Both the position numbers and the translations under genes were made by a program. This document shows, one piece after another, positions 5,147 through 24,892 of a stretch of DNA of 61,767 nucleotides. The stretch comes from Planctomycetia bacterium. GTDB taxonomy: Bacteria; Planctomycetota; UBA1135; GCA-002686595. The notes under the pieces were generated by a model. That model was not told the DNA's origin. It saw nothing but the letters and a program-made list of their open reading frames with translations, and made no database searches. Positions within the stretch are counted from its first letter, which is position 1. Every line of letters begins with the position of its first letter. The stretch is taken from the NCBI GenBank assembly GCA_005799545.1, contig SYGM01000009.1, positions 1-61,767 of the forward strand, given 5' to 3'.

Positions 5147-6511
5147 ATGGCACCCCGCAAGCGCTATTCAGTCCTGCGCGACCCCGTCCACGGGGACATC
5201 TACCTGACGCACGAGGAACTGGCGCTGCTCGACACCCGGGAGATGCAGCGGTTGCGCGGGGTCAAGCAGCTGGGGACGGCCTACCTGGTGTTTCCCGGCG
5301 CCCTCCACACCCGCTTCGACCATTCGATCGGCAGCCTGCACATGGCGGCCCGGATGATCGAATCGGTCAACCTCTCGGCCGAGCTCGACCCGGCCGGCTC
5401 GACCGGAATCAGCGAGGAGGAGGCGCGCGTGATCCGCGCCGCGGCGCTGGTCCACGACATCACGCACATTCCCTTCGGCCATTCGATCGAGGATCAGGAC
5501 GGCATCTTCGGACGCCACGATCGTCCGGAGCGCTTCCAGAAGCTGCTGGGGGAGGGCACCGAGGTCGGGCGCGTGCTGCGCGAGCAGGGCCTGTCCGAGG
5601 ACGTGCTGGCCGTGCTGGGCGCGAACCCCGGACGGCGCATCCCTCCGTGCTGGTCGCAGATCGTCGGGGGGACGATCGCCTCGGACATCCTCGACTATCT
5701 GGCACGCGATGCGTACTTCACGGGGCTGAGGCTCTCCGTGGACCCGCGCGTGACGAGCTACTTCAAGATCGACCGATTCACGGGCAATCTGTTCCTCGAT
5801 CTCGCCAAGCATGATCTGTTGCGCGAGGACATTCTCTCGGAGATCGTGCGGTTGCTGGAAGCACGCTACTACTTCTCCGAGCGCGTCTACTATCACCATG
5901 CCAAGGTCAGCGCGGGCGCGCTGCTGGCACGCGCCGTCGAAACTGCGATGGCGGCCGGCGCCGTCAAGGAAGCGGATTTCCAGGATCAGGATGACCATTC
6001 TGTGCTCGATCTGCTCGAGCGCTCGATGGAGGGCCGCGACAAGAGCGCGCGCGAGCGAGTGCGCGCGCTCGTGCGCCGCTTCCGTCTGCGCCAGCTGTAC
6101 AAGCGCGCCTGCGTCTTTCCGCGCTACGACAACGAGGAGGCGCAGGAGCGTCTGGTCAACCGCTTCTTCGCGCCCGGCGGCGCGGTGGCGCGAGCCGAGG
6201 TCGAGGCGCGCATCGGGGATCTGGTGCGCTTTTCCACCGGCCGCACGGTCGACGTGATCGTGTACTGCCCGGCCAAGAAGATGCAGCTCAAGGAGGCCCG
6301 CATGCACGTGCGCTGGCCGGGCATGAAGGAAGTGCGGCCGCTGAGTGAATTTGCGCCCAAGATCCCCCGGTTGGCGGATCTGGAGCGCAGCTACCGCGAT
6401 CTGTGGAAGTTTTACGTGTTCGCGGACACGACCGAACCGCGCCTCCTGGAGGAGGTCCAGAAGGCGGCACTGGCGGAATTCGGGGGGCTTTCCAACGCCT
6501 ACCGGGTCTAG
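5147..6511 (+). CDS. HD-domain phosphohydrolase (SAMHD1/YdhJ-like)
   Basis: RDPVHGDIYLT, QRLRGVKQLGTAYLVFPGALHTRFDHSIG, LVHDITHIPFGHSIED; ORF start trimmed to MAPRK at 5147. Confidence 0.9.
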   Translation: MAPRKRYSVLRDPVHGDIYLTHEELALLDTREMQRLRGVKQLGTAYLVFPGALHTRFDHSIGSLHMAARMIESVNLSAELDPAGSTGISEEEARVIRAAALVHDITHIPFGHSIEDQDGIFGRHDRPERFQKLLGEGTEVGRVLREQGLSEDVLAVLGANPGRRIPPCWSQIVGGTIASDILDYLARDAYFTGLRLSVDPRVTSYFKIDRFTGNLFLDLAKHDLLREDILSEIVRLLEARYYFSERVYYHHAKVSAGALLARAVETAMAAGAVKEADFQDQDDHSVLDLLERSMEGRDKSARERVRALVRRFRLRQLYKRACVFPRYDNEEAQERLVNRFFAPGGAVARAEVEARIGDLVRFSTGRTVDVIVYCPAKKMQLKEARMHVRWPGMKEVRPLSEFAPKIPRLADLERSYRDLWKFYVFADTTEPRLLEEVQKAALAEFGGLSNAYRV

Positions 6512-6621
6512 TAAATGGGAAATGGCCGGATGTCTCCCTTTGGGGTAGAATCCTGCGCCCATCGGCCGCCGCGCACGCTCGCGCGAGCTGCCTGACCCTC
6601 CCTTCTTCCATCCCTAGCCCC

Positions 6622-7809
6622 ATGCCGGACATCGTCATCATTGGCGGATGTGGCCACGTCGGCCTGCCGCTGTGCCTTGCCTTCGCCAAGGCTGGCAAGC
6701 AGGTCGTCGCGCTCGACATCGACGCCAAGAAAGTCGCCGAGACCAACGCTGGCAAGATGCCCTTCATCGACGCGGGGGCGGACGAACTGCTGCTCGCGGT
6801 GCGCAAGTCCGGGAAGTTCGAAGCCACCACGGATTCTTCCTGCATCAGCAAGGCCGACACCGTCATCACCGTGATCGGCACCCCACTGGATGAGCACCTC
6901 AACCCGCGCCTCGAGGTGTACGGCGATCTGATCAAGAAGGACCGCTCCAAGCTGCGCAACGGGCAGCTGCTGATCATGCGGAGCACGGTCTATCCCGGCA
7001 CGACGGAGCATGTTGCCCATGCGCTGAAGACGGCTGGGTTCGAAGTGGATGTCGCCTTCTGCCCCGAGCGCGTGGCGCAGGGCGTGGCACTGGAGGAGAT
7101 CCACTCGCTGCCGCAGATCATCTCGGGCGTGACGCCGCGCGCGGTGGAGCGCGCCAGCGAGCTTTTCAAGCTGCTGACTCCCGATCTGATCGTCGTTCCG
7201 ACGATGGCTGCCGAGCTCACGAAGCTCTACAACAACGCTTGGCGCTACATCCAGTTCGCTGCCGCGAACCAGTTCTACATGATCGCGAACGAGTACGGTC
7301 TCGACTTCTACGAGATCCACCGCGCGATGACCGAGAAGTACCCGCGCGCGAAGGGCTTCCCCAAGGCCGGATTCGCGGCCGGTCCCTGCCTGTTCAAGGA
7401 CACGATGCAGCTGTCCTCGTTCCACGAGAACGCGTTCTTCCTCGGTCACTCGGCCATGCTGGTCAACGAGGGCCTGCCGAACTACATCGTGCGCCGCGCG
7501 GCCGCCAAGTACGACCTGCGCAACATCACGGTCGGCATCCTGGGCATGACCTTCAAGCCGGACTGCGACGACCCGCGCGACTCGCTCTCCTACAAGCTGA
7601 AGAAGTGTCTGGCCTTCGAGGCCCGTGAAGTGCTCTGCGCCGATCCGTATTTGGAGAGGCCGTGGATCCACACTCCCGAGGAAGTGATCGAGCGCTCCGG
7701 CCTGATCTTCATCGGCACCCCGCACACCCCGTACAAGAAGCTCAACTACAAGGGCAAGCCCGTCATCGATGTCTGGAACGCCATCCCCGGCGGAATGACC
7801 ACCATATGA
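6622..7809 (+). CDS. UDP-sugar (UDP-glucose/ManNAc-type) dehydrogenase
   Basis: MPDIVIIGGCGHVGLPLCLAFAKAGKQVVALDID; GTPLDEHLNPR; MRSTVYPGTTE; ELTKLYNNAWRYIQFAAANQF; GFAAGPCLFKDTMQL (catalytic Cys). ORF track start trimmed to 6622. Confidence 0.92.
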   Translation: MPDIVIIGGCGHVGLPLCLAFAKAGKQVVALDIDAKKVAETNAGKMPFIDAGADELLLAVRKSGKFEATTDSSCISKADTVITVIGTPLDEHLNPRLEVYGDLIKKDRSKLRNGQLLIMRSTVYPGTTEHVAHALKTAGFEVDVAFCPERVAQGVALEEIHSLPQIISGVTPRAVERASELFKLLTPDLIVVPTMAAELTKLYNNAWRYIQFAAANQFYMIANEYGLDFYEIHRAMTEKYPRAKGFPKAGFAAGPCLFKDTMQLSSFHENAFFLGHSAMLVNEGLPNYIVRRAAAKYDLRNITVGILGMTFKPDCDDPRDSLSYKLKKCLAFEAREVLCADPYLERPWIHTPEEVIERSGLIFIGTPHTPYKKLNYKGKPVIDVWNAIPGGMTTI

Positions 7810-8828
7810 AAGTACTCGTCACCGGTTCGAACGGATTCATCGCTGGATACCTCGTCGCGGAGCTGCTGCAGAACGGCTACGAGGTCGTCGGCATCGACAA
7901 CTTCAGCAAGTATGGCAAGGTCGCCAAGTCGTATGACTCGCACCCCAAGTACACGCTCGTCGAGGGCGACGCCAAGAACGTGGAGCTGATGAAGAAGCTG
8001 GTCGCGGACTGCGACCAATTTGTGATCTGCGCCGCCATGATCGGCGGCATCAGCTACTTCCACACCTACGCCTACGACCTGATCGCGGAGAACGACCGCA
8101 TCACGGCGGCGGCCTTCGACACGGCGATCTGGGCCCACAAGCACGCCAAGCTGAAGAAGGCCACGCTGTTGAGCTCCTCCATGGTGTTCGAGAGCACCAA
8201 GGAATTTCCGACTCCGGAAGGTGCCGAGCTGCGTTCGCCTCCGCCGCTCTCCACCTACGGCTTCCAGAAGCTGTCCTGCGAGTTCTACGCCCGCGGCGCA
8301 CACGAGCAGTACAAGCTGCCATACACGATCGTGCGCCCTTTCAACTGCGTGGGCATCGGTGAAGGGCGCGCCCGCGGTGAGCACGAGATCATCTCCGGCA
8401 ATGTCAAGCTGGCGATGAGTCACGTGGTGCCGGACATCGTCCAGAAGATCGTCAAGGGGCAGGACCCGCTGCACATCCTCGGCGATGGCAAGCAGGTGCG
8501 TCACTACACCTACGGCGGCGACCTTGCGCGCGGCATCCGCGTGTGCATGGAGCACCCCGCGGCCCTCAACCAAGACTTCAACATCTCGACGCCCGTGCCG
8601 CACACGGTGCTGGAGCTTGCCGAAGCGATCTGGAAGAAGATCCACGGCAACAAGAAGCCCTTCCGTTACACCTCCGACAAGCCCTTCGAGTACGACGTGC
8701 AGATGCGCACGCCGGATGTCAGCAAGGCCAAGCGCCTGCTCGGATTCGAGGCCACCACTCCGCTCGACACGATCCTTGACGAGGTCGTGCCGTGGATCGA
8801 GGAGCAGGTGAAGCTCGGAACGATCTGA
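7806..8828 (+). CDS. NAD-dependent nucleotide-sugar epimerase/dehydratase (extended SDR)
   Basis: MKVLVTGSNGFIAGYLVAELLQNGYEVVGIDNFSKYG; ATGA overlap with preceding gene; STYGFQKLSCE (YxxxK). Confidence 0.92.
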   Translation: MKVLVTGSNGFIAGYLVAELLQNGYEVVGIDNFSKYGKVAKSYDSHPKYTLVEGDAKNVELMKKLVADCDQFVICAAMIGGISYFHTYAYDLIAENDRITAAAFDTAIWAHKHAKLKKATLLSSSMVFESTKEFPTPEGAELRSPPPLSTYGFQKLSCEFYARGAHEQYKLPYTIVRPFNCVGIGEGRARGEHEIISGNVKLAMSHVVPDIVQKIVKGQDPLHILGDGKQVRHYTYGGDLARGIRVCMEHPAALNQDFNISTPVPHTVLELAEAIWKKIHGNKKPFRYTSDKPFEYDVQMRTPDVSKAKRLLGFEATTPLDTILDEVVPWIEEQVKLGTI

Positions 8829-8829
8829 A

Positions 8830-9513
8830 TCAGCCGGGCTTGCGGGCGACGACGAGGAATTGCTCCCCGAACAGTCGCCACAGGAACGGCATCCGCAGAT
8901 ACCAGCGAACGATCCAGCCCGCCTTCGGCGCGCTGGATCGCGTCGTATACGGCAGGAAACGCGGCACGCGGCGTTCGATGCGCAGCCCCGCGAGGATCAG
9001 GGCCTCGCACAGCGAGTTGTCCGAGATGGGCACGAGATGGTCCCAGAAATCCCAGTACGCCCCGGGCACGATGCGCACGTTGGGTCCCATCAGGATCAGG
9101 CGGCCGCCGGGGCGCAGCACGCGCGCCGCCTCGCGCAGGGTCTCGTCGACAGCCTGCTTGTCGGGCAGGTGTTCAAGGAAGTTCGAGCTGAACACCACAT
9201 CGACGGATCCGTCCGCGAGGAAGCCGAGCTTGCGGACATCCGCAGCGTGAAACTCGATGCCCTGATCCAGTCCCTGGCCGTTGTCCGGGTTGAGATCGAC
9301 GCCGATGCGCCGCTTCGCGCGCACATGATTGAGGAACTCGCCGCGTCCTGACCCGACGTCGAGCACGGTGGACTCGGGCGCGATCAGCGGTTGCAGCGCG
9401 ACCTCCACGATGGCCTGCCAGATGCCCCGACGCAGTTCCGCCTCGCCGGCGGGAATCCGAAAGCGATACAGCTCGTCGAGGTACTCGGCCCGTTCCTTGT
9501 TGGGAGAGCTCAT
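8830..9513 (-). CDS. SAM-dependent methyltransferase (class I)
   Basis: STVLDVGSGRGEFLNHV...FHAADVRKLGFLADGSVDVVFSSNFLEHL; start MSSPNKERAEYLDELY at 9513, ATGA overlap with upstream gene. Confidence 0.88.
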   Translation of the reverse strand: MSSPNKERAEYLDELYRFRIPAGEAELRRGIWQAIVEVALQPLIAPESTVLDVGSGRGEFLNHVRAKRRIGVDLNPDNGQGLDQGIEFHAADVRKLGFLADGSVDVVFSSNFLEHLPDKQAVDETLREAARVLRPGGRLILMGPNVRIVPGAYWDFWDHLVPISDNSLCEALILAGLRIERRVPRFLPYTTRSSAPKAGWIVRWYLRMPFLWRLFGEQFLVVARKPG

Positions 9514-11852
9514 GGTTTGTGAACGCGGACTTCCTGCCAGTATGCCCAATCGCAGGCTCCGTCCCCAGCAGGCCCTGTGGTGCATCGCAGGAACAGCAGG
9601 CTGGGCTGGCTGACCTCGAACTCGAGGTCGGCGGAGCGAACCTCGCCCGAAGGACTGAGGATCAGGTCCAGATGCAGGACCTTGAGCGGGCCATCGCGCG
9701 GCTCCAGTACGAACTGGAAGCTGACACCATCGGAGCAGCTGTGCTCCCAGGCCGCCTCCTGCAGTCCATAGCGCGCCTGCAGGCGGTGCGGTCCGGGTTC
9801 CAGCGCGAATACCAGCGAGCCCGGTGCGCCGAAGCTCAGCCCGAAGCGGCCTTCGATTTCAAATTGCCGGACGGGACCGTTCGACGAGACCTCCAGCGGC
9901 AGGGGATCGATGCAGGTGTAGGTCATGCGGGCCAAGGCAACCGGATCGGGTGGAGGCAGCAGCTCTGAGAGGCTCTCCAATTCGATCTCGGCCGAGCTAG
10001 GCAAGCAGGCCTCCAGCCCTTCCGGCGCCGCGAGGCGCAGCCTCGTCACCTCGGGGCCCGGCTGCCCGCTGAACAGGCGGCACCAGCCGTCCTGATCCTC
10101 CGCGAACGGACGCAGCAGGAAGCCGTCGCTCGCCGGTCCTCGGCAGAGGCGGTGGCTCGCGCTGCGGCCATCGGAGAACTCGAGCTCGACCCGCAGCGTG
10201 GCGGCGTGCAGGAAAAACGAGCGGAGACGGCCCTGCAGCGGAGTCTGCCACCGCACGCGCATCCAGAGCGCTTCCTGCTTCCATTGCGCGAGATCGATCC
10301 ACTCGCCCAGTCGAAGCTCGCGCCGGACGAGCACCGTGCGAGGCAAGGGCGACGGCTCATCCGCGCGCTTCTCCAGCAGCACGTAGCCCTTTTCGCCGAG
10401 GCGGGGTTCATAGCGTCTGAGGATCTCCAGCAAGGCGGGAGCGTCGTCCAGCACGGGCAATCGATCATCGATGCGGTCGTGTCGCAGAAGCACGAAGCGC
10501 GGCGCGCGTTCGCCTGTGAAGTACGCCCGGTTGAGCTCGGACAGCAGGGGCGTGTAGGCCGCGTAGCTCTGGAACACCGGCCGGGGCGCGTAGTTGAACT
10601 CGTTGATCAGCGCGATCGCCGCCGCGGAGTGGATCACGTCCACGCGCTCGTCGCCCACGATGGCTCGGATACGCGGCAGATCGTAGAAGCGGGCGATGCC
10701 CTGCATGCCGCGATCGCGCGAAGCTCGCAGCTCCGGCAGAGCGCGCCATTCCTGAATGCGCGCCAGGTGATACTCCTTCATTTCCTGCCAATACTGGCGT
10801 GTCTGTCCCGGAAGCGAAACCGAGCTCTGATAGCCCAGCGCCGCCAGTACCAGCAGGAACACCACCGCCAGCGGCTGCAGTTGCCGGCGCCAGCCGCTCG
10901 CGCCCGCGAGCTGCAGCCAGGCTCCGAATACCGGTGCGCAGGCGAACAGGATCATCGAATTGCCCATGTGGCGCGTGAATCCCGCCTTGAAGGCGAGGAA
11001 CGCCGCTCCGAGTGTCAGCGCACAGCCCGCGAGCGTGCTGCGCCCATTCTGCGAGGTCCAGCCCTGGGTCAGCGCCAGCGCCGCAAGCGTGCCCAGCGAG
11101 AGCAGAGCCAGCCGAAGCTCCAGCGGCGGCCCGTCGGCCGACATCGCTTCGTTGTAACCGCTCGCGATCGAAAGCGATGTGCGCAGATACTGCGGCAGCG
11201 TGATCAGCGACTGTCCCAGCGCGAGCCACGTGCCCAGAAAGAGGCCAAGTCCCAGCACCGCCAGGCGCAAAGCGCGTCTGCGCTCGCCGGCGAGCGTGAT
11301 GCAGACGATCATGAGCGCGTAGAGCATCAGATAACTGAACTTGACCTGCGCCAGCAGCGCGGCGGCCAGCAGGAACAGAGCCTCTCTCGCGCGCGGGAGT
11401 TCCGGCTTGCGGATCAGCAGCAGTCCGATGCCGGTGATCGCGATCAGCGCGAAGGCATCGAGTCCCGCGGGAATCCACAGCAGCGCCAGCGCGGTGAGCA
11501 GCCGGCTGCTCCAACCGCGAAAGGTGGCGACCAGATCAACGCAGGCCAGAGCGCAGAGTCCCTTGAGGCACAGTTCAAACCCCCAGAGCTTCGCCGCCAT
11601 GAGCTCGGGCATGTGCGGTGCTGCATAGAACCATCCCAGCGGCCCGTAGGTGAACACGCTCTCTGTTCCAAGCGCAGTACCCTGCAGCAGTTGCCAGCCC
11701 TTGACGGCCTGCCAGGACTCGTCAAGACCCGGCGTGGCTGCGCGCGCGGGCAGGCTGAATTCCTTGAACAGGATAGCCAGCCACAAGAGCGCCCTCCACG
11801 CGAGTTCAACGCGCAGGGAGGATCCGGACGTCTGACCACCAGAACCACGCAT
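9510..11852 (-). CDS. Multi-TM GT-C-like membrane protein with C-terminal NPCBM-like domain (paralog A)
   Basis: TPGLDESWQAVKGWQLLQGTALGTESVFTYGPLGWFYA, KFSY, LGQS, FKAGFTRHMGNSM; C-terminus GDGACDWAYWQEVRVHKP. Start uncertain (11852 or 11888). Confidence 0.8.
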   Translation of the reverse strand: MRGSGGQTSGSSLRVELAWRALLWLAILFKEFSLPARAATPGLDESWQAVKGWQLLQGTALGTESVFTYGPLGWFYAAPHMPELMAAKLWGFELCLKGLCALACVDLVATFRGWSSRLLTALALLWIPAGLDAFALIAITGIGLLLIRKPELPRAREALFLLAAALLAQVKFSYLMLYALMIVCITLAGERRRALRLAVLGLGLFLGTWLALGQSLITLPQYLRTSLSIASGYNEAMSADGPPLELRLALLSLGTLAALALTQGWTSQNGRSTLAGCALTLGAAFLAFKAGFTRHMGNSMILFACAPVFGAWLQLAGASGWRRQLQPLAVVFLLVLAALGYQSSVSLPGQTRQYWQEMKEYHLARIQEWRALPELRASRDRGMQGIARFYDLPRIRAIVGDERVDVIHSAAAIALINEFNYAPRPVFQSYAAYTPLLSELNRAYFTGERAPRFVLLRHDRIDDRLPVLDDAPALLEILRRYEPRLGEKGYVLLEKRADEPSPLPRTVLVRRELRLGEWIDLAQWKQEALWMRVRWQTPLQGRLRSFFLHAATLRVELEFSDGRSASHRLCRGPASDGFLLRPFAEDQDGWCRLFSGQPGPEVTRLRLAAPEGLEACLPSSAEIELESLSELLPPPDPVALARMTYTCIDPLPLEVSSNGPVRQFEIEGRFGLSFGAPGSLVFALEPGPHRLQARYGLQEAAWEHSCSDGVSFQFVLEPRDGPLKVLHLDLILSPSGEVRSADLEFEVSQPSLLFLRCTTGPAGDGACDWAYWQEVRVHKP

Positions 11853-14109
11853 TGCGCACAGCATCCCCCTCGGGGAGTGTCGCTGCAAGGATCAGGTACT
11901 CCGGCTGGCCGACGGGCAGATCCAGCTGGAGGGACTGCGGACCGCGATCGGTGGCCTCGCGGCCTGGTTCAAGCCAGCGCTCGGATAGGAGCCTCAGCTG
12001 TCCGCGCTCGATGACCGCGACGCGGACACAGATGCGTCTGCTCGAATCCCTGCCTTGCGGGTCGGACTCCAGACCGAAGCGCGCTTCGACGCGCCTGTCT
12101 GCGGGAGAAAGCGCGAAGGTCAGCGAGGACGGCGCGAAGCTGAAGACCTTTTCCAGCCCGCTGTGGTTGATGCGCAGCAGATCGCGCGGCGCGTCGATAC
12201 CGATGGGGGCGCGCTCAAACAGGCTGGCGCCGATCCGCGCCGCCAGTCCCGTCAGCGGCGCACGCTGCAGTTCTCCGCGCTGGAACTTGAGTCCGAAGCG
12301 CTCCGGCCAGGCGAAGCGGAAGACCGGCGGGCAGTGGAAGCGGATGCGGCGGGGACGCGGCAGGGGCGTGCGCTCGTACAGTGCCACGAAGCCCTCATTG
12401 CCCAGCACCAGAGGCCCGAGCAGGAACGGTTCCCGGGCTAGCTCCGGCACGATGCGAAAGCTGCGCGAGCGACCCTGATCGTCTTCGATCTCCAGCATCA
12501 GCTCCGCGCTGCGGTACAGCAGGTTCACGAGCCTGCCCGCGGCATTCGGCCGAAGATCCAGAGCAAGCCGCAGCTGGTCATCTGCGACCTCCGGAACCGG
12601 GATCCACTCTTCCCAGCCGCACTCCTGCACCTCAAGCGGCGTGAGCGTCAGCCCGGACTCGCTCGCGCTGCGCTGCAAAAGCAGATCGCCCCGCTCGCTC
12701 CAGACCGGCTCGTAGGTGCGGAGGTAGTGGTCGAGCAGCTGCGAGTGCTCGTGCATCGGGAAGCGATCGTCGATCGTCGCGAGGCGGAAGAGCACGAACT
12801 GCGGCGGTCGCGTGCGGTAGCCGGCGACATCGAGCGACTGCAGCCTTGGCGTGAACGCCACGTAGCTGTGGGGAATGGGGCGCGGCTGGTAGTTGAGTCC
12901 GTTGAGCAGCGCGACGCCCTGATGATGGTTGTAGACGTCGATGGGGGCATCGCCGACGCGCGCGCGGATCTGCGGGCGGTCAAAGCGCGCAGCGCGCGTG
13001 AGCCTTTCGGAGTTCAACCTATCCCGCGCCTGCATGGGCGTGAATCCTGCCCAGGCGCGTTCGAACGCCAGACGGGGCCACTGCAGCGGCTCCGGTCGAG
13101 AGGTCTGTGGGGCGAGAGCCAGCGCAGTGACCGCCAGCGCGCTCGCGGCAACCCGCACTGCAGCCAGTCTGCCGCTGCCGCACAGCCACGGCGCCAGCGC
13201 CGCGAAACCGAGGAAATAGGGCGTGTGGTCGTCACCACGCGTGATACCCGCCTTCCAGGAAACGAAGTAGGCACCGGCCAGCGCCAGCTTCAGTCCGGGT
13301 CCGGATGAGCCGCGTAGCAGCAGCACGACCTGACAGGCCATGACCGCCAGCGCCAGCACCAGTTGATCCGTGGGCGGGGTCTTCGATTGACCGGAACCGT
13401 AGGCCGCAGCGATCTGCAGCGAGTTGTCGAACCAGGGGAGCAGGTTGGCGGGTGATTGCCCCAGCAGGATCCACAGCAGCAGCACGCAAGTCAGCATGCG
13501 GCCCAGATCCGCAACACCGCGCTTCCACTCGCGCGAGAAGCACAGCGCCGCGAGCGCGCCCGCGCTCGCCACCAGCAAAGTGAACTTGATCAGCGCCAGC
13601 GACGCGAGCAGTCCCGCCAGTCCCCAGCGCACCCAGGCCCGCTGCGGCTCGCCGAGCAGCACGCAGGCCGCCGCCAGCAACGCGATCGCATAAGCATCAA
13701 ATTCCAGCGGAAGCACTGTCGCCAGCAGCACAGCCAGAGCGCGTTGCCAGAGCTGTTCCAGTCGCCAGAATGCGCTCGCCAGCACGCAGCTGGCCGCCAG
13801 TCGCCAACCCAGCTCGAAAAGCCAGTAGCGCGGCCACCACAGCAGCGGCTCATCCACCACGGTCGCGAACCAGCCCAACGGTCCATATGTGAAAGACCAG
13901 TCCTCGCCGACCTGCCAGCGCTGCGCCAGCAGACGACCGATCACGTGCGACCACGAAGGGTCAAGCGCATCGTCCGCGATCACCCGCGGCAGGGACAACT
14001 GGCCGAGCCACAAGAGCAGCACGCACAGGACCGAAAGGCCTCGATTCGTCCGTCCGTGATCTCGCATCGGCACCAGCAATAGCGGCCCGGAGGGCCGGAG
14101 TTCAAACAT
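11806..14109 (-). CDS. Multi-TM GT-C-like membrane protein with C-terminal NPCBM-like domain (paralog B)
   Basis: DDALDPSWSHVIGRLLAQRWQVGEDWSFTYGPLGWF, LGQS, WKAGITRGDDHTPYF; C-terminal VEARFGLES...WFWWSDVRILPAR. Start may be the internal Met at 14067. Confidence 0.8.
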   Translation of the reverse strand: MFELRPSGPLLLVPMRDHGRTNRGLSVLCVLLLWLGQLSLPRVIADDALDPSWSHVIGRLLAQRWQVGEDWSFTYGPLGWFATVVDEPLLWWPRYWLFELGWRLAASCVLASAFWRLEQLWQRALAVLLATVLPLEFDAYAIALLAAACVLLGEPQRAWVRWGLAGLLASLALIKFTLLVASAGALAALCFSREWKRGVADLGRMLTCVLLLWILLGQSPANLLPWFDNSLQIAAAYGSGQSKTPPTDQLVLALAVMACQVVLLLRGSSGPGLKLALAGAYFVSWKAGITRGDDHTPYFLGFAALAPWLCGSGRLAAVRVAASALAVTALALAPQTSRPEPLQWPRLAFERAWAGFTPMQARDRLNSERLTRAARFDRPQIRARVGDAPIDVYNHHQGVALLNGLNYQPRPIPHSYVAFTPRLQSLDVAGYRTRPPQFVLFRLATIDDRFPMHEHSQLLDHYLRTYEPVWSERGDLLLQRSASESGLTLTPLEVQECGWEEWIPVPEVADDQLRLALDLRPNAAGRLVNLLYRSAELMLEIEDDQGRSRSFRIVPELAREPFLLGPLVLGNEGFVALYERTPLPRPRRIRFHCPPVFRFAWPERFGLKFQRGELQRAPLTGLAARIGASLFERAPIGIDAPRDLLRINHSGLEKVFSFAPSSLTFALSPADRRVEARFGLESDPQGRDSSRRICVRVAVIERGQLRLLSERWLEPGREATDRGPQSLQLDLPVGQPEYLILAATLPEGDAVRNAWFWWSDVRILPAR

Positions 14110-14112
14110 CCT

Positions 14113-15093
14113 TCACGATTGCTGGCGGGGTCGCGTCGCCAGCAACAACGCACCGCTGGGGACGGCCGCCAGCAGCAGGAGCAGGCTGGGTCCGCTCATG
14201 AGCACGGGGGCGAGCCAGCAAAGCGGATGGAGCAGGTCGAGCCAGGTATTGCGGTTCCTCAGCCGCCTTGCCACCAGCAGCACCGACAGCGTGACGAGGA
14301 ACAGGAGCGCGATCAGGGAGCGCTGCCCGGAATCGGGAGCCTGCACGAGCCCCGCAGTCGCGAGCAGCAGGGCCAGTCCCGTGCACGCCAGCGGCTGCCG
14401 CATCGCCACCCAGAACCAGTGCAGGTAATTCGGCAGCCACTTCCACAGCTTGAAATTGCTCTGACCCGCGCTGCGATCGGTCCAGGAACTCGGCACTTCG
14501 CTCACGCTCAGGCCCATCTGCTGGGCCTTGACCGTCAACTCCAGTGCGATCTCGAATCCGCGCTTGCTCTCGATCTCGGTGTGGGCGAGGTACTCCGCGG
14601 CGTACGCACGGAAGTTGGTGGTGGCATCGCGCGTTCCCAGTCCCGCGAGATCGTGCAGCAGCCTGCCCGCCACGCACGACATCGTGCGCTTGATCAGGGG
14701 GCCGCCGGTCTGCGAGCCGCCCGGCATGTAGCGCGATCCTGACACGACCGCATTGCCCGCGCGGATCGCCGCCGCCATCTGCGGGATCACTTCCGGAGGG
14801 TCGGAAAGATCCGCCATGGTCGTCACGACCACATCGCCCGTCGCCGCCCGGAAGCCGGTGCGGATGGCGTTGGGCGCGCCTCTGCCGATCGTGTTGCGGG
14901 TCAGCTTCACCGCCGGTGACAGATCGCTCATGGCCCTGATTGCCGGCAGGGTCGTGTCCTCGTCGAAGTCGTAACAGACGAGGATCTCGTGCTCGACGCC
15001 CTTCAGAGCGCGGTCGAGCCTGCGCAGGCACTCGGCAATGTTCTCGCCCTCGTTGTAGACGGGCAGCACGACGCTGATCAATCTGGGTCGCAT
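14113..15093 (-). CDS. Glycosyltransferase family 2, polyprenyl/dolichyl-phosphate hexose synthase-like
   Basis: MRPRLISVVLPVYNEGENIAECLRRLDRALKGVEHEILVCYDFDEDTTLPAIRAM...RGAPNAIRTGFRAATGDVVVTTMADLSDPPE; C-terminal TM segments. Confidence 0.87.
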   Translation of the reverse strand: MRPRLISVVLPVYNEGENIAECLRRLDRALKGVEHEILVCYDFDEDTTLPAIRAMSDLSPAVKLTRNTIGRGAPNAIRTGFRAATGDVVVTTMADLSDPPEVIPQMAAAIRAGNAVVSGSRYMPGGSQTGGPLIKRTMSCVAGRLLHDLAGLGTRDATTNFRAYAAEYLAHTEIESKRGFEIALELTVKAQQMGLSVSEVPSSWTDRSAGQSNFKLWKWLPNYLHWFWVAMRQPLACTGLALLLATAGLVQAPDSGQRSLIALLFLVTLSVLLVARRLRNRNTWLDLLHPLCWLAPVLMSGPSLLLLLAAVPSGALLLATRPRQQS

Positions 15094-15133
15094 GGGGGGG
15101 CTGGTCGAAAGGACTGCGATTCTAGCAGGAATC

Positions 15134-16897
15134 TCAGCGCATCTTGAGGTTGAGCAGCACGATCCACGCACGAGCGGCGGTGCCCGGATCCTCGTCGGGA
15201 AGATCGAAACAGAGCATCAATTGCCCAGTCGCGCCCGCGGGCACAGGGTACTCGCGGGAAACGGGCTCGACGAGTGACTCCTGGGCCAGCGTCTGGATCG
15301 TGCCGTCGGAGCGCTTCCACTCCAGACGCCAGGGGACGGCGACGGCCCGCCCTTCCTTGCGCAACTGCAGCGGCGGCTCCATCAGCAGGCCGAAGGCCTG
15401 CTCGTTGCCCCACAACTGCCAGACCAGCTGAGCGGGTGCGCGCACCACCACGACTGCCTGGCCGTCCATGCGCCGCATGATCAGCTTGTTGTCACCCCGC
15501 ACCGTGTCCGGAGGCGTGTCCAGGCACAGCGAAGAGTCCTGCAGCTGCCGGTCGCTGCTAGGGCCGTGAAACGGAGGGATGCCACGGCGGTGATATTGGA
15601 GCAGCAGATTGCGCACATGAAGAGCATCGGCTGCCAGGGCGGCCTGCTGGTAGCGCTCAGCCAGCTGGTTGGTGGGCACATTTGCATCGGCCAGTGCCTG
15701 CAACTCCATCGCCTCATGGGTGCGGATGGATCCGACCAGATAGGCCTCCTGATTTCCTGCTGGCTGCGCCTGCAGCATCAGCAGCGCAAGCGAGAGCGGC
15801 GCCAGAAAACGTACGGCAAGCCACGGCGTGGTCAGCGCCGTTGCCGCCACTGCCGTGAAAAATGGCAGCGGGAACGGAGTGTAACGATTGGCGACCATCG
15901 TGTTCTGGTACGCGGGTCGCGCATAACTCATCGACAGGCCATAGGCGAGTGCCGCTCCGAGCACGCAGAACAGGACGCAGGCCGGCAGGTCGGAACCGCG
16001 GCTCTTCCAGATGCGCGAGCCGTTCCACAGAAGGGCGGCGAAGAGTGCGGCGCTGATCGGATACCAGAGCCAGCCCTGCAACTGCGTGGAATAGGGGCCG
16101 AAGGCGATGCTCCAGTGGACGGGCACGTGGCTCAGCAATGTCGCCACCGACAAGGCGTATTCCGCGCGCGGCGGGCTTTCGTAGTCGACGAAGTACAGAC
16201 CGAGCGAAACCAGCGGCAGCAGGCTGCCGCCAAGCAACGTCTTTCCGCTCGCTGTCCGGCGGTCGCTCCAGCCGCGCCACAGCAAGGCCGTGGTCAGCGG
16301 CAGCGTCAGAATGATGCCGTAGCCTCCGCACATGGGCAGTCCTGCCGTCGCAACCACTGCGGCGGCAGACCGCCAGACACGATCCTCACTGCTCGCGCGA
16401 GCCAGCGCCCAGATCACGAACATCACCAGCAGCACAGGCACGGCGATGCACAGCTGGAAGCCCATCAGCAGATTCTCGTGATTGGCGATCTGGAGGAATC
16501 CCAGCGGGAAGAACAGGTCCGCGAGATCCGCGCGACCGCGCAGTCTCACAGCGCAGCTGCGGCCGAGCACGGCGGCGATCAGCAGCAGCGTGACCTGAGC
16601 GTGCATACCGGAGCGGATGTCGTCGGTCAGGATGTACAGCGGGAACCACAGCAGCTTGGGCAGCGGCTCGCGATGCTCGTTGTGCAGCGCCATGAGCCAG
16701 TGGCCGAACCAGCCGCCCTCCCGGGCGTGCACGCCGTCGATCAGCGTGGTGTCGTCGGCAAAGAAGATGTTGCTCGCGTTGGTCGCGATGAACAGATGTG
16801 CGTCGAACGCGCACCAAAGGAGCAGCAGCCAGAACATGGCTGAGCACAGGCGCACGTAGCTGTCGCGGAGGGAAGTCGCCGATAACACCCCCGACAT
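15134..16897 (-). CDS. Large multi-TM membrane protein (possible GT-C-type glycosyltransferase)
   Basis: About ten hydrophobic segments; acidic first-loop motif FFADDTTLIDGVHAREGGWFGHWL, HNEHREPLPKLLW; soluble C-terminal tail. Confidence 0.7.
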   Translation of the reverse strand: MSGVLSATSLRDSYVRLCSAMFWLLLLWCAFDAHLFIATNASNIFFADDTTLIDGVHAREGGWFGHWLMALHNEHREPLPKLLWFPLYILTDDIRSGMHAQVTLLLIAAVLGRSCAVRLRGRADLADLFFPLGFLQIANHENLLMGFQLCIAVPVLLVMFVIWALARASSEDRVWRSAAAVVATAGLPMCGGYGIILTLPLTTALLWRGWSDRRTASGKTLLGGSLLPLVSLGLYFVDYESPPRAEYALSVATLLSHVPVHWSIAFGPYSTQLQGWLWYPISAALFAALLWNGSRIWKSRGSDLPACVLFCVLGAALAYGLSMSYARPAYQNTMVANRYTPFPLPFFTAVAATALTTPWLAVRFLAPLSLALLMLQAQPAGNQEAYLVGSIRTHEAMELQALADANVPTNQLAERYQQAALAADALHVRNLLLQYHRRGIPPFHGPSSDRQLQDSSLCLDTPPDTVRGDNKLIMRRMDGQAVVVVRAPAQLVWQLWGNEQAFGLLMEPPLQLRKEGRAVAVPWRLEWKRSDGTIQTLAQESLVEPVSREYPVPAGATGQLMLCFDLPDEDPGTAARAWIVLLNLKMR

Positions 16898-16902
16898 GGT
16901 AG

Positions 16903-19284
16903 CTATTCGAGGCGCTCGATGCGCACGTCCGCCCAATATGTCCAATCGCAGGCGGTATTGCCGGCGGAGCCGTTGGTCGTCCTCAGGTACAGCGAATACG
17001 GGGTCTCGAGGGCGATTTCGAGCTCGAGATCCTGCTCTTCGCGGTCTGCCTCGCGCACGCCAGGCAGGAGCTCACGCCGCATCCACTCGCGAATCTGACC
17101 CGGCTGGTCCTTCGTCAGCACGACGAAGGCGGCACCATCGGTGCAACCCGAGGCCCAGGCGTCGGAAATCAGGCCGAAGCGCCCGCGCAGGCGGTAGCGT
17201 CCCGGCTGCAGATCCCAGCGCGCGGTCGAGGGCGCGTGCATCAGCATCACCTCCGTGCCCTTGTAGGACACCGGATTGGGCGGCTGCGCCGCTCCCAGCT
17301 GAGCGGGTTTCGGGTCAAAGCCGCCAAGCTGGCGCTCAAGGGTCGGAATCTCGGCGGGCGGAGGCAGCAGACCTTCCACGCGCTCGACGCGCACCCTGAA
17401 TTCAGGCTCAAAATGGCCGGAATAGCGGGGAACGACCACCAGCCGGAACCGGCGCACACCCGGCGGCGCCACGCCCGAGAACAGCTTGACGACATCCTCC
17501 TGGGAGATGATGTGAGGGCGCAGCAGATAGCCCTCGCGCAGGGAGCGCGGCACCACGCGGTGATTGAAGCGAACCTGGTTGTCCAGCTCGAACTCGCCCC
17601 ATACCAGCGCCCCGTGCACAAGAAAGGTCCAGGCCTTGCCGGCGAGAGTGGGTTTGAGATCCACGGACACACGCAACGTCTGTCCGCTGACGTTGCCGAT
17701 GTCGATCCACTCGTCAAAGCGGCCGGTGGTCTCCAGTGCCCATTCGCGGATCACCTCGCGCGCAGGTCCCTCGTTGCGCTCGAGCAGCAACCAGCCGTTC
17801 TCGATGAAAACCGGGCGGTAGCGGCGCAGCAGCAGCTCGAAGGTGTCGCCCTCGGCCGCCATCGGCAGGCGCGCGTCAATGATCCCGATCTGATGGAGCA
17901 CGAAGCGCGGTGCGTCCGGACCCGCGTAGTGCGCCGCGTTGATCGCCGCCAGTTCCGGCATGTAGGTCTTGTAGCTCTGGAACACCGGACGCGGCGCATA
18001 GTTGAGCCCGTTGAGCATCGCGATCGACTGCCCCGTGTCGAACACGTCGATCGGCTCCCTGCCCACATGCTTGCACACGCCGGGCAACCGGTAGTGTTCC
18101 CTGATGCGGCGGTCGGAGATCTTCAGGGCCTCGTGCACACGCTCGAGGCCGGTCAGCGTGTTCCAGCGGCCGATGCACAGGTCCTTGTAGGCATACCAGT
18201 AGTACTCCCAACCGTGCTGATACAGCTGGATGGCGTGCAGATAGCCCAGGGCGCAGGCGCAGATCGTGCCCAGGCGCACGGCGCTGATGGACCAGCGCAC
18301 AAGGCGCGAGCCCAGATCCTGGACGCAGCCGAAGGCGAAGAAGGTCGCGGAGGGCACGACCGCGAAGCTGATCATCGAGTTGCCCATGTGCCGCGTGAAG
18401 CCTGCCTTGTAGGCCATGCCTGCTCCCAGCAGCGCGATCAGGGCCATCGCCACGACGCGCGGATCACGCCGCTGCTTCCATCCCAGCAGGGTGACGACTC
18501 CGATCGCCGCTGCCAGCAGCGTCCAGATCAGCAGCAACTCGTGGCGCGAGCCGTCGAGCGACATCCCGTCGTTGTAGCCCTGGGTGACCCACCAGCTGGT
18601 GCGCACATAAGCCGGCAGGTCGGCCAGCGACTGCCCCAGCGCAAACCACACGAACCAGAAAGTCAGTGCCGCACGCAGGAGGAAAATCAGGCCCCGGCGC
18701 ACCGAGTCCGAGCGCATCAGCGCCAGCGCGATCAGGCCGATCGCCAGGAAGAACACCAGCGCGTAGGTGAACTTGACCATCGCGATCGTGACCAGCAGCA
18801 GCAGCGCCAGCATTTCACCCGGCCAGCTGCGGGTTCCCGGTTCGAGCAGATACCGGACCAGCGCGAGCGTCGCGACGAAGGCGAAGCCGTCGAAACCCGC
18901 CGGGACCACCAGCAGCGCCAGTGCGAACAGCAGGCGCGTCAGGAAGCCGGGCGTCAGCCAGACCGCTCGCACGCAGAACATGACGAGCAGTCCCTTGAAG
19001 GCGATCTCAAAGCCCCACAGCTTCCAGTTCCACAGCTCTTCGACGTAGCAGGAAGCGTAGAACCAGCCCAGCCGGCCGTACGTGAAGATGCTCTCGACAC
19101 CCAGCCGCGTGCCGTTCAGGAGTTCCGCGGCCTTGATCGCGTGCCACGACTCATCCAGCGACGGCGTCGCCGTTCGCTCCATCGGGCTGAACTCCTTGAA
19201 CCACAGCGCGAACGCCAGCGGCGCCAACCACCAGAGATTCCACAGCAGCGAAGGCTGTGCGCGCGGGCGAGGATCGCGAGCCAT
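16903..19284 (-). CDS. Multi-TM GT-C-like membrane protein with C-terminal NPCBM-like domain (paralog C)
   Basis: TPSLDESWHAIKAAELLNGTRLGVESIFTYGRLGWFYA, KFTY, LGQS, YKAGFTRHMGNSM; C-terminus RGRFGLISDAWASGCTDGAAF...TACDWTYWADVRIERLE. Confidence 0.82.
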   Translation of the reverse strand: MARDPRPRAQPSLLWNLWWLAPLAFALWFKEFSPMERTATPSLDESWHAIKAAELLNGTRLGVESIFTYGRLGWFYASCYVEELWNWKLWGFEIAFKGLLVMFCVRAVWLTPGFLTRLLFALALLVVPAGFDGFAFVATLALVRYLLEPGTRSWPGEMLALLLLVTIAMVKFTYALVFFLAIGLIALALMRSDSVRRGLIFLLRAALTFWFVWFALGQSLADLPAYVRTSWWVTQGYNDGMSLDGSRHELLLIWTLLAAAIGVVTLLGWKQRRDPRVVAMALIALLGAGMAYKAGFTRHMGNSMISFAVVPSATFFAFGCVQDLGSRLVRWSISAVRLGTICACALGYLHAIQLYQHGWEYYWYAYKDLCIGRWNTLTGLERVHEALKISDRRIREHYRLPGVCKHVGREPIDVFDTGQSIAMLNGLNYAPRPVFQSYKTYMPELAAINAAHYAGPDAPRFVLHQIGIIDARLPMAAEGDTFELLLRRYRPVFIENGWLLLERNEGPAREVIREWALETTGRFDEWIDIGNVSGQTLRVSVDLKPTLAGKAWTFLVHGALVWGEFELDNQVRFNHRVVPRSLREGYLLRPHIISQEDVVKLFSGVAPPGVRRFRLVVVPRYSGHFEPEFRVRVERVEGLLPPPAEIPTLERQLGGFDPKPAQLGAAQPPNPVSYKGTEVMLMHAPSTARWDLQPGRYRLRGRFGLISDAWASGCTDGAAFVVLTKDQPGQIREWMRRELLPGVREADREEQDLELEIALETPYSLYLRTTNGSAGNTACDWTYWADVRIERLE

Positions 19285-19297
19285 GCTGCCCCTGATT

Positions 19298-20485
19298 CTA
19301 GCGTCGCATGGCCGCCGTGCGGGCGGGATGGCGCTGGAGGAAGCTCTCGAGCCGCAAGAGCGCCTTTTCGATCACCTCGAGCGAGGTTGCGTAGGAGAAG
19401 CGGATGTGCTGATCGACGCCGAAGGCCGATCCGGGCACCACGGCGAGGTTTTCCTGCTCCAGCAGGTCTTCGCAGAGGCCCGTGGAGCCGCGCTCATCCA
19501 GGTACGGCGCCACGCTGGGGAATGCGTAGAAGGCGCCTCGCGGCATCGGCGTCTCCAGTCCCAACGCGCGCAGACCGCTGACGATGCGCTGTCGGCGGCG
19601 ATCGAACTCAGCGCACATCTTCGTGACCTCGGGCGGCTCCTGAACGAGTCCGGCCTCGAACGCGGTCTGGGAGATGTAGTTGGGGGCGCCGGTCAGCTGG
19701 CTGTGAAGCTTTCCGACGGCGGCGGCGATGGCACGCGGCGCCGCAACGTAGCCGATGCGGTAGCCGGTCATCGCCAGAGCCTTGCTCGCTCCATCGATGA
19801 TCACGGTGCGCTCGCGCAGCTCAGGGGAGATCTGCACCGGTGAGAAGTCGCGCTCGCCCTCGTAGATCAGACGCCGGTAGATCTCGTCGGAGATGATCCA
19901 CAGGTCATGGCGCTGCGCAAGCGCTCCGAGCGCGCGCACCTCGGCCTCGGTCATCACGTAACCGGAGGGGTTGCAGGGCGAGTTGATCAGGATGCCCTTG
20001 GTGCGCGGCGTGATGGCGCGCGCGATCGCGTCGAGATCGGGGCCCAGATCGCCGCGCGAGGGGATGCTGACCGGAACGCCTCCGGCGAAGCGCACAATCT
20101 CGACGTAGCTGACCCAGGCGGGCAGCAGCATCAGCACCTCGTCGCCCGGCTCGATCAGCGCGAGGCACGCCCCCGAGAGCGCGTGCTTGGCGCTGTGGCA
20201 GACGGTGATCTCATTGGCGGCGTACGCAACCCCGCGGGTTGCAGTGACGTGCTCGGCGATGGTCTTGCGCAGCGAAGGCGTGCCCTCCGCGGGGGTGTAG
20301 CGCACCTTGCCCGAGCGCACGGCCGAGACCGCGGCCGACTGCACGGCCTCGGGAGCGTTGAAGTCGGGCTCACCGACGGTCATGTTGACCACGTCCCGTC
20401 CTGCCGCGACCAGCTCCTTCGCCCGGGTGTCTAGGGCGATCGTGGTCGACAGGCTCATGCTCGCTACCCGTTGGTTGGGCCTCAT
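19298..20485 (-). CDS. PLP-dependent aminotransferase, class I/II (aspartate aminotransferase-like)
   Basis: ARAKEL..GRDVVNMTVGEPDFNAPE; NSPCNPSGYVMTE; IIDGASKALAMTGYRIGYVAAP (PLP Lys). Confidence 0.92.
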   Translation of the reverse strand: MRPNQRVASMSLSTTIALDTRAKELVAAGRDVVNMTVGEPDFNAPEAVQSAAVSAVRSGKVRYTPAEGTPSLRKTIAEHVTATRGVAYAANEITVCHSAKHALSGACLALIEPGDEVLMLLPAWVSYVEIVRFAGGVPVSIPSRGDLGPDLDAIARAITPRTKGILINSPCNPSGYVMTEAEVRALGALAQRHDLWIISDEIYRRLIYEGERDFSPVQISPELRERTVIIDGASKALAMTGYRIGYVAAPRAIAAAVGKLHSQLTGAPNYISQTAFEAGLVQEPPEVTKMCAEFDRRRQRIVSGLRALGLETPMPRGAFYAFPSVAPYLDERGSTGLCEDLLEQENLAVVPGSAFGVDQHIRFSYATSLEVIEKALLRLESFLQRHPARTAAMRR

Positions 20486-20603
20486 CGCTCCCATTCTCAT
20501 GCCCGCGGCCGAAGGATCAATAGGGGGGTGATTTCCCTGCAGCCGGGCCCTGGACCTGCGGCGGGGGATACCCAGAGAGCCGGGGAAGAAAGCCGGCCCC
20601 GCG

Positions 20604-23017: not shown

Positions 23018-24892
23018 TCAGAAGCCGATCACGGGCCGGAACCCGATCTTGCACGAGGCGTGCGCGGCATGCGCGCGCCAGCGGAACGCGCTGCGGCACA
23101 GCTTCAGTCCGTCCGCGAAGGAGCCGCCGCGGATCACGCGCTGTTCGCCGTCGTGGCAGACCGGATCCACGCGCACCTTGGACTGGTAGTACTTCTGCGA
23201 GTAGCGGTCTTCGCACCACTCGTAGACATTTCCGAGCATGTCGTGGAAACCCCACGCATTCGGCTCGAAGCTGCCGACCGGCGAAGTGTAGATGTGGCCG
23301 TCTTCGAAGGGGAATTCCGGGGGCATCATCTCGAAGCGATTGGCATAGGTGCGGTCGCCGAAGTTGCCCTTGCCGCGCCCGTCGCGCGGATCCTCGCCCC
23401 AGAAATACAGCGTTGTGGTTCCGGCGCGCGCCGCGCACTCCCACTCGGCCTCTGAAGGCAGGCGGAAGCCGAAGTGCGCATTGAACGCGGACACATCGTC
23501 CCAGGAGACCTGCGTCACCGGGTGGTGGTCGAGCTCCTGCATCACGGTGGAATCGAGCAGCGGCAGCGGGTTTTCCCAGGTGGCGCGCGCGTGGGCGATC
23601 CACTTGCCCTCCAGATCGAGCGTCGTGCCCATCTGCGAGCGCTCGGCTTCGCTGTGGTAATGCGTGAGCGCGACGAAGCCGCGCCACTGTTCGACGGTGA
23701 CGAGGCATTCCGCCAGATAGTAGGGGTGCGGCAGGCGCACGTGGTGGCGGGGACGCTCGCGCTCCTCGCCGACCGCGTCGGGTGAGCCGCGCACGAACTC
23801 GCAGGGTGCGATCAGCAGGAACACGATGCCGGACTTGTCGTGCCGAACGCGCTTGGCGAAGCCTTCGTGACCCAGCTGGGAGTCCAGCGGGGTGCAGCCG
23901 ATCGGGGCCTTGCCGCGCTTGCGCGAGAACAGCGCGCCGATCCTGCCGACCACGCCTTCCTGCACGACTTCCACGACACCCGTCGGGCGCCGACGCGCTT
24001 CCTGCAGCACGCGCGAGGCCGAATCAGGCCGCTGCACCGGATCCGGATCGAGGCAGCGCAGGAGGATCGCATCCAGCTGATCCGAGCCGCTGTTGGGGTT
24101 GGTGGGCTTCGTCGCCGGCGGCAATTCGCCCGTCACCAGCTGATAGAGCGTGGCGCCCAGCGAGTAGATGTCCGAAGCGGGCGTGGGCTGCGCACCGCGC
24201 GTCAACTCCGGCGCCATGAAGCCCGGCGTCCCGCCCAGCGGCTTGCGCAGCATGCTGCCGCCCTGCGTGTTGCCGCTGACGCGGATCGTCAGGCCCAGAT
24301 CGGTCAGCTTGACCATTCCGCGCCCCTCGCGCAGCGGAAAGCTCAGCGGTGCGCTGAGCATCATGTTGGCGGGCTTGAGGTCCTGATGCACCAGCCCGCG
24401 CTGGTGGATCAGATCGAGCGCGGGAACGATCTATTCCAGAACCCATTCGACGTCCTTGTAGGGCAGGCGCTTGTTGCCGCGCTTCCTGACTGTCCCGAGC
24501 ACTTCGTTGAGGGTCGGACCTTCGAGGTACTCCATGCTGAGGAAGGCGAACTCGCCCGCCCGCGCGATGTCGTGGATGCGCACGATGCGCTCGTGTGACA
24601 GCGCCATGCCCCGGCGCGCCTCGCGCACCAGATCGTCCCAGGCCTGCGGGTCGCTCAGCAGCGACTTGGCGAGGAACTTGAGCGCGATCCGCTGCTTGGT
24701 AAAGCGGTCCTGGGCCAGCCAGACCTCGCCCATGCCGCCGCGGCCGAGGAAGCGCTCAAGCTGGTAGCGCTCGCCGAGCAGCAGGCCCTGCGTCAGCGGT
24801 GCCGTGCTGCCGCGCAGCTCCTGAAAGAGGGCCTCGGTGTTCTCCGGAGTCTGGGGTAGCTCCGGTTCGGTGGGCAACATTGGATCGTTCAT
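23018..24892 (-). pseudogene. Ser/Thr protein kinase fused to C-terminal FGE/SUMF1-type domain, interrupted by in-frame TAG
   Basis: MNDPMLPTEPELPQTPENTEALFQELRGS...LGRGGMGEVWLAQDRFTKQRIALKFLAK...VEWVLE*IVPALDLIHQRGLVHQDLKPANMM...DLGL..GTPGFMAPE...; then SUMF1-like LPSEAEWECAARAG, NVYEWCED, RVIRGGSF. TAG at 24433-24431; both halves are in the same frame. Confidence 0.85.

What the first reader, a model, noticed from the sequence alone, without database searches (positions are those of the whole stretch)
9510..19284. Three paralogous GT-C-like membrane proteins ending in an NPCBM-like domain
Seen: ORFs 9510-11852, 11806-14109 and 16903-19284 share an ordered motif set: LDxSW, then FTYGxLGWF about 20 aa later, a mid-membrane KF(T/S) and LGQS, and (F/W/Y)KAG(F/I)TR. 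All have a long soluble C-terminal half. In two of them it closes with 'xACDWxYWxxVRI', in the third with 'WFWWSDVRI', each after an RxGL segment. Established: GT-C glycosyltransferases carry catalytic acidic residues in the first extracytoplasmic loop, and NPCBM domains are carbohydrate-binding beta-sandwiches that often end in a 'D-x-A-D-W' type strand. Inference: LDxSW could be the catalytic loop, making these polyprenyl-phosphate-sugar-dependent glycosyltransferases tethered to a sugar-binding module. I do not recognise a named family with this architecture. Paralogs A and C are closer to each other (both keep TRHMGNSM) than to B.
Basis: partly seen in the sequence, partly recalled or inferred. 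Interest (0 to 1): 0.75.

Follow-up and report, generated by a model that had tools for sequence, protein, structure and literature searches.

The report
Uncatalogued sugar-transferase family with sugar-binding tail
Three related membrane proteins in a planctomycete operon look like enzymes that take sugars from a lipid carrier and add them to surface glycans outside the membrane; they belong to a widespread bacterial and archaeal family that the protein-family databases searched do not yet list.

Summary
A (9510-11852), B (11806-14109) and C (16903-19284) are full-length homologues (36% and 31% identity) with the stated motifs. A confident AlphaFold model (pLDDT 92) matches solved GT-C glycosyltransferases (AftD, OST, ArnT, AftB, Emb). 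LDxSW sits just after TM1, and its Asp is present in 69 of 73 relatives. The last ~140 residues are NPCBM/CBM51-like by profile comparison (96.6%), with CBM51 among the fold matches.

In three other genomes the GT2 is fused in frame to the GT-C-like protein. In Burkholderia and Rhizobium the family sits beside polyprenyl-phospho-arabinose genes. All this points to polyprenyl-phosphate-sugar donors.

The family has more than 200 relatives in the genome collection, spans many phyla and one archaeon, and has no Pfam, NCBIfam, PHROG or PDB sequence match. GT-C plus CBM has precedent (Emb, AftD, GT136), so this is a new variant of a known kind. Donor sugar and acceptor remain unknown, and A and C lack a conserved His/Asp motif.

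The parts
16903..19284 (-). Paralogue C: GT-C-like membrane domain (1-~357), periplasmic alpha/beta domain (~358-497), beta-rich middle domain (~498-654), NPCBM-like module (655-793)
11806..14109 (-). Paralogue B, same architecture
9510..11852 (-). Paralogue A, same architecture
19144..19158 (-). C: LDESW (residues 43-47), first extracytoplasmic loop, putative catalytic Asp44
11712..11726 (-). A: LDESW (residues 43-47)
13951..13965 (-). B: LDPSW (residues 49-53)
16906..17322 (-). C: NPCBM/CBM51-like module (residues 655-793)
9513..9914 (-). A: NPCBM/CBM51-like module (approx. residues 647-780)
11809..12222 (-). B: NPCBM/CBM51-like module (approx. residues 630-767)
15134..16945 (-). D: different polytopic membrane protein (FADDTTLIDG...HNEHR), GT-C-like by profile comparison, diverged copy of the same C-terminal module
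14113..15171 (-). GT2, closest solved relative dolichyl-phosphate mannose synthase; hydrophobic tail with about four apparent TM segments (read by eye); presumed maker of the polyprenyl-phosphate-sugar donor
   Evidence: fused to family members in L034 (=L023), L028 and L066
8830..9585 (-). Class I SAM methyltransferase; a homologue accompanies the family in several other phyla
19298..20500 (-). PLP aminotransferase (aspartate type) 13 bases upstream of C; may share the transcript but is probably housekeeping

Best explanation
A, B and C (and the distinct neighbour D) are GT-C-type glycosyltransferases. The GT2 encoded between D and B charges a polyprenyl phosphate with a sugar on the cytoplasmic face. 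A flippase not identified here moves it across. A, B, C and D transfer the sugar on the outer face, with the Asp of LDxSW as probable catalytic base and the conserved Lys, Gln and Arg at the outer helix ends (K171, Q218, K293, R298 in C) binding donor phosphate and sugar. The periplasmic alpha/beta domain (D413, RPVFQSY) completes the site. The C-terminal NPCBM/CBM51-like module probably holds the growing polysaccharide or other envelope glycan. Several paralogues would make successive or alternative linkages, and the methyltransferase would decorate the glycan. Shown: homology, operon layout, predicted fold, conservation, GT2 fusions, module identity. Inferred: activity, donor sugar, acceptor, role of each residue.
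For: Model of C: pLDDT 92.2, pTM 0.89. Top PDB fold match is the arabinofuranosyltransferase AftD (E=4.9e-7), then EmbC and, further down, OST STT3 and ArnT. With the N-terminal 505 residues alone the first ten matches are AftD, OST and AftB, while decoys such as AmtB have low probability. LDxSW follows TM1; D44 present in 69/73, acidic residue 64 in 66/73, K171 71/73, R298 71/73, D413 73/73, RP(432-433) 73/73. Most conserved membrane-domain residues fall at one face in the predicted topology. GT2 best PDB match is dolichol monophosphate mannose synthase (E=5.9e-31). GT2 fused in frame in L034/L023, L028 and L066; GT2 within 1.5 kb in 10 of 78 loci, 9 on the same strand. DprE1/DprE2/UbiA/GtrA neighbours in Burkholderia, Rhizobium, Pseudomonas and Lysobacterales. 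Module versus NPCBM: hhalign 96.6%, P=5.7e-10; the middle domain as negative control gives 0.7%.
Against: TM-scores to GT-C structures are modest (0.28-0.45 of the query), so it is a divergent GT-C. Sequence-profile similarity to PMT_2 is weak (48.5%, reversed control 1.6%). A and C lack the Asp and His of the otherwise common R-x-D-G-H motif after TM9 (they have TRHMGN), so their chemistry could differ or be lost. No flippase was identified in the operon. Most Verrucomicrobiota members have no DPMS-like GT2 within the flanks held. No experiment.
Confidence: 0.8

Rival explanations
1. OST-like or PMT-like protein glycosyltransferases: GT-C enzymes whose acceptors are secreted proteins rather than polysaccharide.
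For: OST STT3 structures are among the best fold matches. PMC11841053 cites a GT-C arabinosyltransferase (TfpW) that glycosylates pilins.
Against: A CBM-like tail and several tandem paralogues fit a glycan acceptor better. GT2 and DPA genes supply single-sugar monophosphate donors, not the pyrophosphate oligosaccharides OST uses. No pilin or secretion genes were seen next to the operon.
Confidence: 0.12
2. Diverged, partly non-catalytic paralogues: A and C bind glycan and assist B or D (scaffold or length control).
For: A and C lost D300/H302 of the common RxDGH motif; B keeps RGDDH.
Against: All other invariant residues, including D44, E64, K171, R298 and D413, are kept in A and C. Two copies are retained in the same operon.
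Confidence: 0.1
3. Polysaccharide polymerase or ligase (Wzy/WaaL type, GT-C_B) using pyrophosphate-linked glycans.
For: Large periplasmic parts and tandem paralogues in a surface-glycan setting.
Against: The fold search returned GT-C enzymes of the AftD/OST/ArnT/AftB/Emb kind and no Wzy or WaaL among the listed matches. Donor genes beside it make monophosphate sugars.
Confidence: 0.04

Closest known systems
Mycobacterial AftD and EmbA/B/C arabinofuranosyltransferases
   Same: GT-C membrane domain with carbohydrate-binding modules on the outer side; best and third-best fold matches; polyprenyl-phospho-arabinose genes accompany some family members.
   Different: No detectable sequence similarity (no PDB chain at E<=10); different motifs and lengths; window members sit with a GT2 rather than DPA genes.
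GT136 (Citrobacter youngae ORF12), PMC11127046
   Same: GT-C with catalytic Asp after TM1 and a C-terminal CBM; polyprenyl-phosphate pentofuranose donor.
   Different: ORF12's reported essential residues (D31, E34, H106, R349; Y35 and Y350 also important) do not match this family's D-x-S-W, K, R pattern; no conserved His equivalent to H106 in the alignment.
ArnT / PMT_2 (GT83/GT39, PF13231)
   Same: ArnT is a fold match; weak profile match that aligns FTYGPLG with the KPPL segment.
   Different: No Pfam hit; profile probability only 48.5%.
GtrA-GtrB-Gtr O-antigen glucosylation systems
   Same: Polyprenyl-phosphate-sugar synthase plus GT-C logic; some members have GtrA nearby.
   Different: No GtrA identified in the window operon; the GT2 is closest to DPMS and ArnC; CBM-like tail added.
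NPCBM / CBM51 (PF08305)
   Same: Profile match 96.6% and CBM51 structures in the fold matches.
   Different: Not detected by the Pfam model in A, B or C; on membrane glycosyltransferases rather than glycoside hydrolases.

Membership tests
GT-C glycosyltransferase superfamily | Multi-TM domain with GT-C fold | tested here: met
   AftD, OST, AftB, ArnT, Emb and ALG matches; modest TM-scores
GT-C glycosyltransferase superfamily | Conserved acidic residue in the first extracytoplasmic loop | tested here: met
   D44 in 69/73, acidic residue 64 in 66/73; helix order places them after TM1. Sidedness inferred, not measured
GT-C glycosyltransferase superfamily | Transfer from a polyprenyl-phosphate sugar | not testable with these tools
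   Only genomic evidence: GT2 fusions and DPA gene neighbours
Known Pfam/NCBIfam GT-C families | Match to a curated model | tested here: not met
   No relevant match at E<=1 for A, B, C; none across 24 diverse members beyond one weak DUF2142 hit, E=0.057
GT136 | Active-site residues D31-x2-E34-Y35, H106, R349-Y350 | tested here: inconclusive
   Residues from PMC11127046; the family has D-x-S-W and no conserved His at that place, but no GT136 sequence was available to align
NPCBM / CBM51 (PF08305) | Match to the Pfam model above its cut-off | tested here: not met
   model finds other genes of the genome, not A, B or C
NPCBM / CBM51 (PF08305) | Profile-level homology and beta-sandwich fold | tested here: met
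   hhalign 96.6%; the module HMM also finds a Pfam-positive NPCBM protein of the same genome; CBM51 fold matches
NPCBM / CBM51 (PF08305) | Carbohydrate binding | not testable with these tools
   No binding data
Polyprenyl-phosphate sugar synthase (GT2 in the operon) | GT2 domain of the DPMS/ArnC/GtrB kind | tested here: met
   PF00535 E=2.6e-21; DPMS 5.9e-31, ArnC 3.4e-16, sll0501 (GtrB-type) 5e-9

The most novel reading that the evidence does not exclude
A large GT-C family spread over many bacterial phyla and at least one archaeon and missing from the family databases searched, sometimes made as one polypeptide with its donor-making GT2, and sharing a mobile NPCBM-like glycan-holding module with at least two other membrane protein families, so that PVC bacteria (Planctomycetota, Verrucomicrobiota) combine different transferases with one glycan anchor.
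Probability: 0.6. Interest if true: 0.6.

Novelty: new variant of a known kind. Interest (0 to 1): 0.5.

Why it matters
It would give a testable function to a widespread group of 'hypothetical' membrane proteins (Planctomycetota, Verrucomicrobiota, Legionella, Burkholderia, Rhizobium, Methanoculleus), tie them to lipid-linked sugar donors, and offer a marker (LDxSW...FTYGPLG...RPVFQSY) for finding extracytoplasmic glycosylation loci. The GT2-GT-C fusions make donor specificity directly testable in one protein.

Tried and rejected
Profile search of PDB sequences: no hit at E<=10, so homology to known GT-C enzymes rests on fold. Middle domain as NPCBM: rejected (0.7%). First PMT_2 alignment picked wrong frames for some loci and was redone. 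Phage origin: rejected; no PHROG hit and only a weak 30%-coverage Leptospira phage match. DPA as the window's donor: not excluded, since the genome has DPPR-synthase, DprE1- and DprE2-like genes, but these lie on other contigs. Literature searches for an earlier description found none in the open library.

Full report
Observation. The three ORFs are open at the stated places on the - strand and are homologous end to end: A-C 36%, A-B 31%. All stated motifs are there. A and C are sisters (0.999). The same assembly holds a fourth member on contig C40. The host is a planctomycete by inference: same-family or same-order genomes carry contigs of the same length as records named Planctomycetota (JACRIO010000104.1, JAEUHQ010000038.1, JAEUIA010000015.1, JAKFYL010000344.1).

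Family. No Pfam, NCBIfam or PHROG model fits, nor Pfam or NCBIfam for 24 diverse relatives. One scan of genome contigs found 225 stretches encoding relatives, in Planctomycetota, Verrucomicrobiota (many Opitutaceae), Gammaproteobacteria (Tahibacter, Legionella, Pseudomonas, Thiomargarita), Acidobacteria, Bacteroidia, Elusimicrobia, Armatimonadetes, Nitrospina, Synergistales, Deferribacteraceae and the archaeon Methanoculleus. Annotated plasmid copies in Burkholderia and Rhizobium are called hypothetical protein. In a de-duplicated set, 40 members reach the C-terminal module and 41 stop near profile position 630 or are cut by contig ends, so the module is an accessory to a core of about 630 positions.

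Fold. AlphaFold on a 73-sequence alignment gave pLDDT 92.2 and pTM 0.89 for C. The best PDB match is AftD (E=4.9e-7), followed among others by EmbC, OST, ArnT, and CBM22, CBM51 and CBM6 modules. The first 505 residues alone again match AftD, OST and AftB ahead of all decoys. TM-scores are modest (0.28-0.45), as expected for a divergent GT-C. Helix order (13-31, loop, 82-110 and so on) puts LDxSW, the acidic residue 64, K171, Q218 and R298 on one side of the membrane, taken here as the outer side from the GT-C layout. A profile comparison with local PMT_2 proteins is weak (48.5%, reversed control 1.6%) but lines FTYGPLG up with the KPPL segment.

C-terminal module. Pfam's NPCBM model does not see it, but profile-profile comparison with NPCBM domains of related genomes gives 96.6% (P=5.7e-10), while the neighbouring middle domain gives 0.7%. 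CBM51 structures appear among the fold matches. The same module ends other membrane protein families: D-type proteins (E down to about 1e-22 in relatives; window D itself is diverged, E=0.0018) and at least one large Opitutaceae group. D and the A/B/C family co-occur across 61 genomes (6 shared of 8 each, Fisher p=1.3e-5). D resembles PMT_2 proteins (91%, reversed control 13%).

Operon and donor. C, D, GT2, B, A and the methyltransferase run in one direction with overlaps or gaps of a few bases. The GT2's best solved relative is dolichol monophosphate mannose synthase (E=5.9e-31), then ArnC and GtrB-type enzymes. In L034/L023, L028 and L066 the GT2 and the GT-C-like protein are one reading frame; L066 is from Brocadiia. 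Near relatives of this GT2 lie within 1.5 kb in 10 of 78 loci, 9 on the same strand; a homologue of the methyltransferase is on the same strand in 10 loci, 5 of them within 1.5 kb. In Burkholderia, Rhizobium, Pseudomonas and Lysobacterales the neighbours are instead DPPR-synthase-like UbiA, DprE1, DprE2 and often GtrA. Both settings supply polyprenyl-monophosphate sugars. The window's genome also encodes DPPR synthase (above the NCBIfam cut-off) and DprE1- and DprE2-like proteins on other contigs, so a pentofuranose donor cannot be excluded.

What is uncertain. A and C, unlike about 80-90% of relatives, lack the Asp and His of R-x-D-G-H after TM9. Donor sugar, linkage, acceptor, flippase and the need for the module are unknown. 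Sequences of GT136 and TfpW were not available for a direct membership test.

Verdict. The architecture is not without precedent: Emb, AftD and GT136 are GT-C enzymes with CBMs (PMC11127046). New here are the uncatalogued family, its breadth, the GT2 fusions and the sharing of one module between different membrane families.

Noticed in passing
window 15134-16945 (-): A fourth operon membrane protein, unrelated in its N-terminal half, ends in a diverged copy of the same module; in relatives (L021, L034, L152, L154, L155, L159) the module is clear.
   Followed up: partly
L035, L037, L038, L042, L045, L048, L062: Verrucomicrobiota (mostly Opitutaceae) loci carry tandem runs of three or more membrane proteins that share the C-terminal module; many differ in their N-terminal halves (one cluster of 33 similar proteins).
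   Followed up: partly
L119:2723-5204 and L121:1266-2063 (contigs C194 and C172 of the window's assembly): DprE1-like, DprE2-like and DPPR-synthase genes: a polyprenyl-phospho-arabinose pathway outside Actinobacteria, in a planctomycete.
   Followed up: partly
L115:2835-7431: In Burkholderia stagnalis two isocyanide synthase genes lie just upstream of the family member.
   Followed up: no
window 6403-8828 (+): A nucleotide-sugar dehydrogenase and an NAD-dependent epimerase converge on the operon, consistent with a glycan locus.
   Followed up: partly
window 23018-24391 (-): Protein kinase domain (incomplete as called) fused to a sulfatase-modifying-factor (FGE) domain.
   Followed up: no
window 9510-11852 and 16903-19284: A and C have TRHMGN in place of the common R-x-D-G-H; L034:7902-10343, their nearest relative, has also lost it.
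   Followed up: partly
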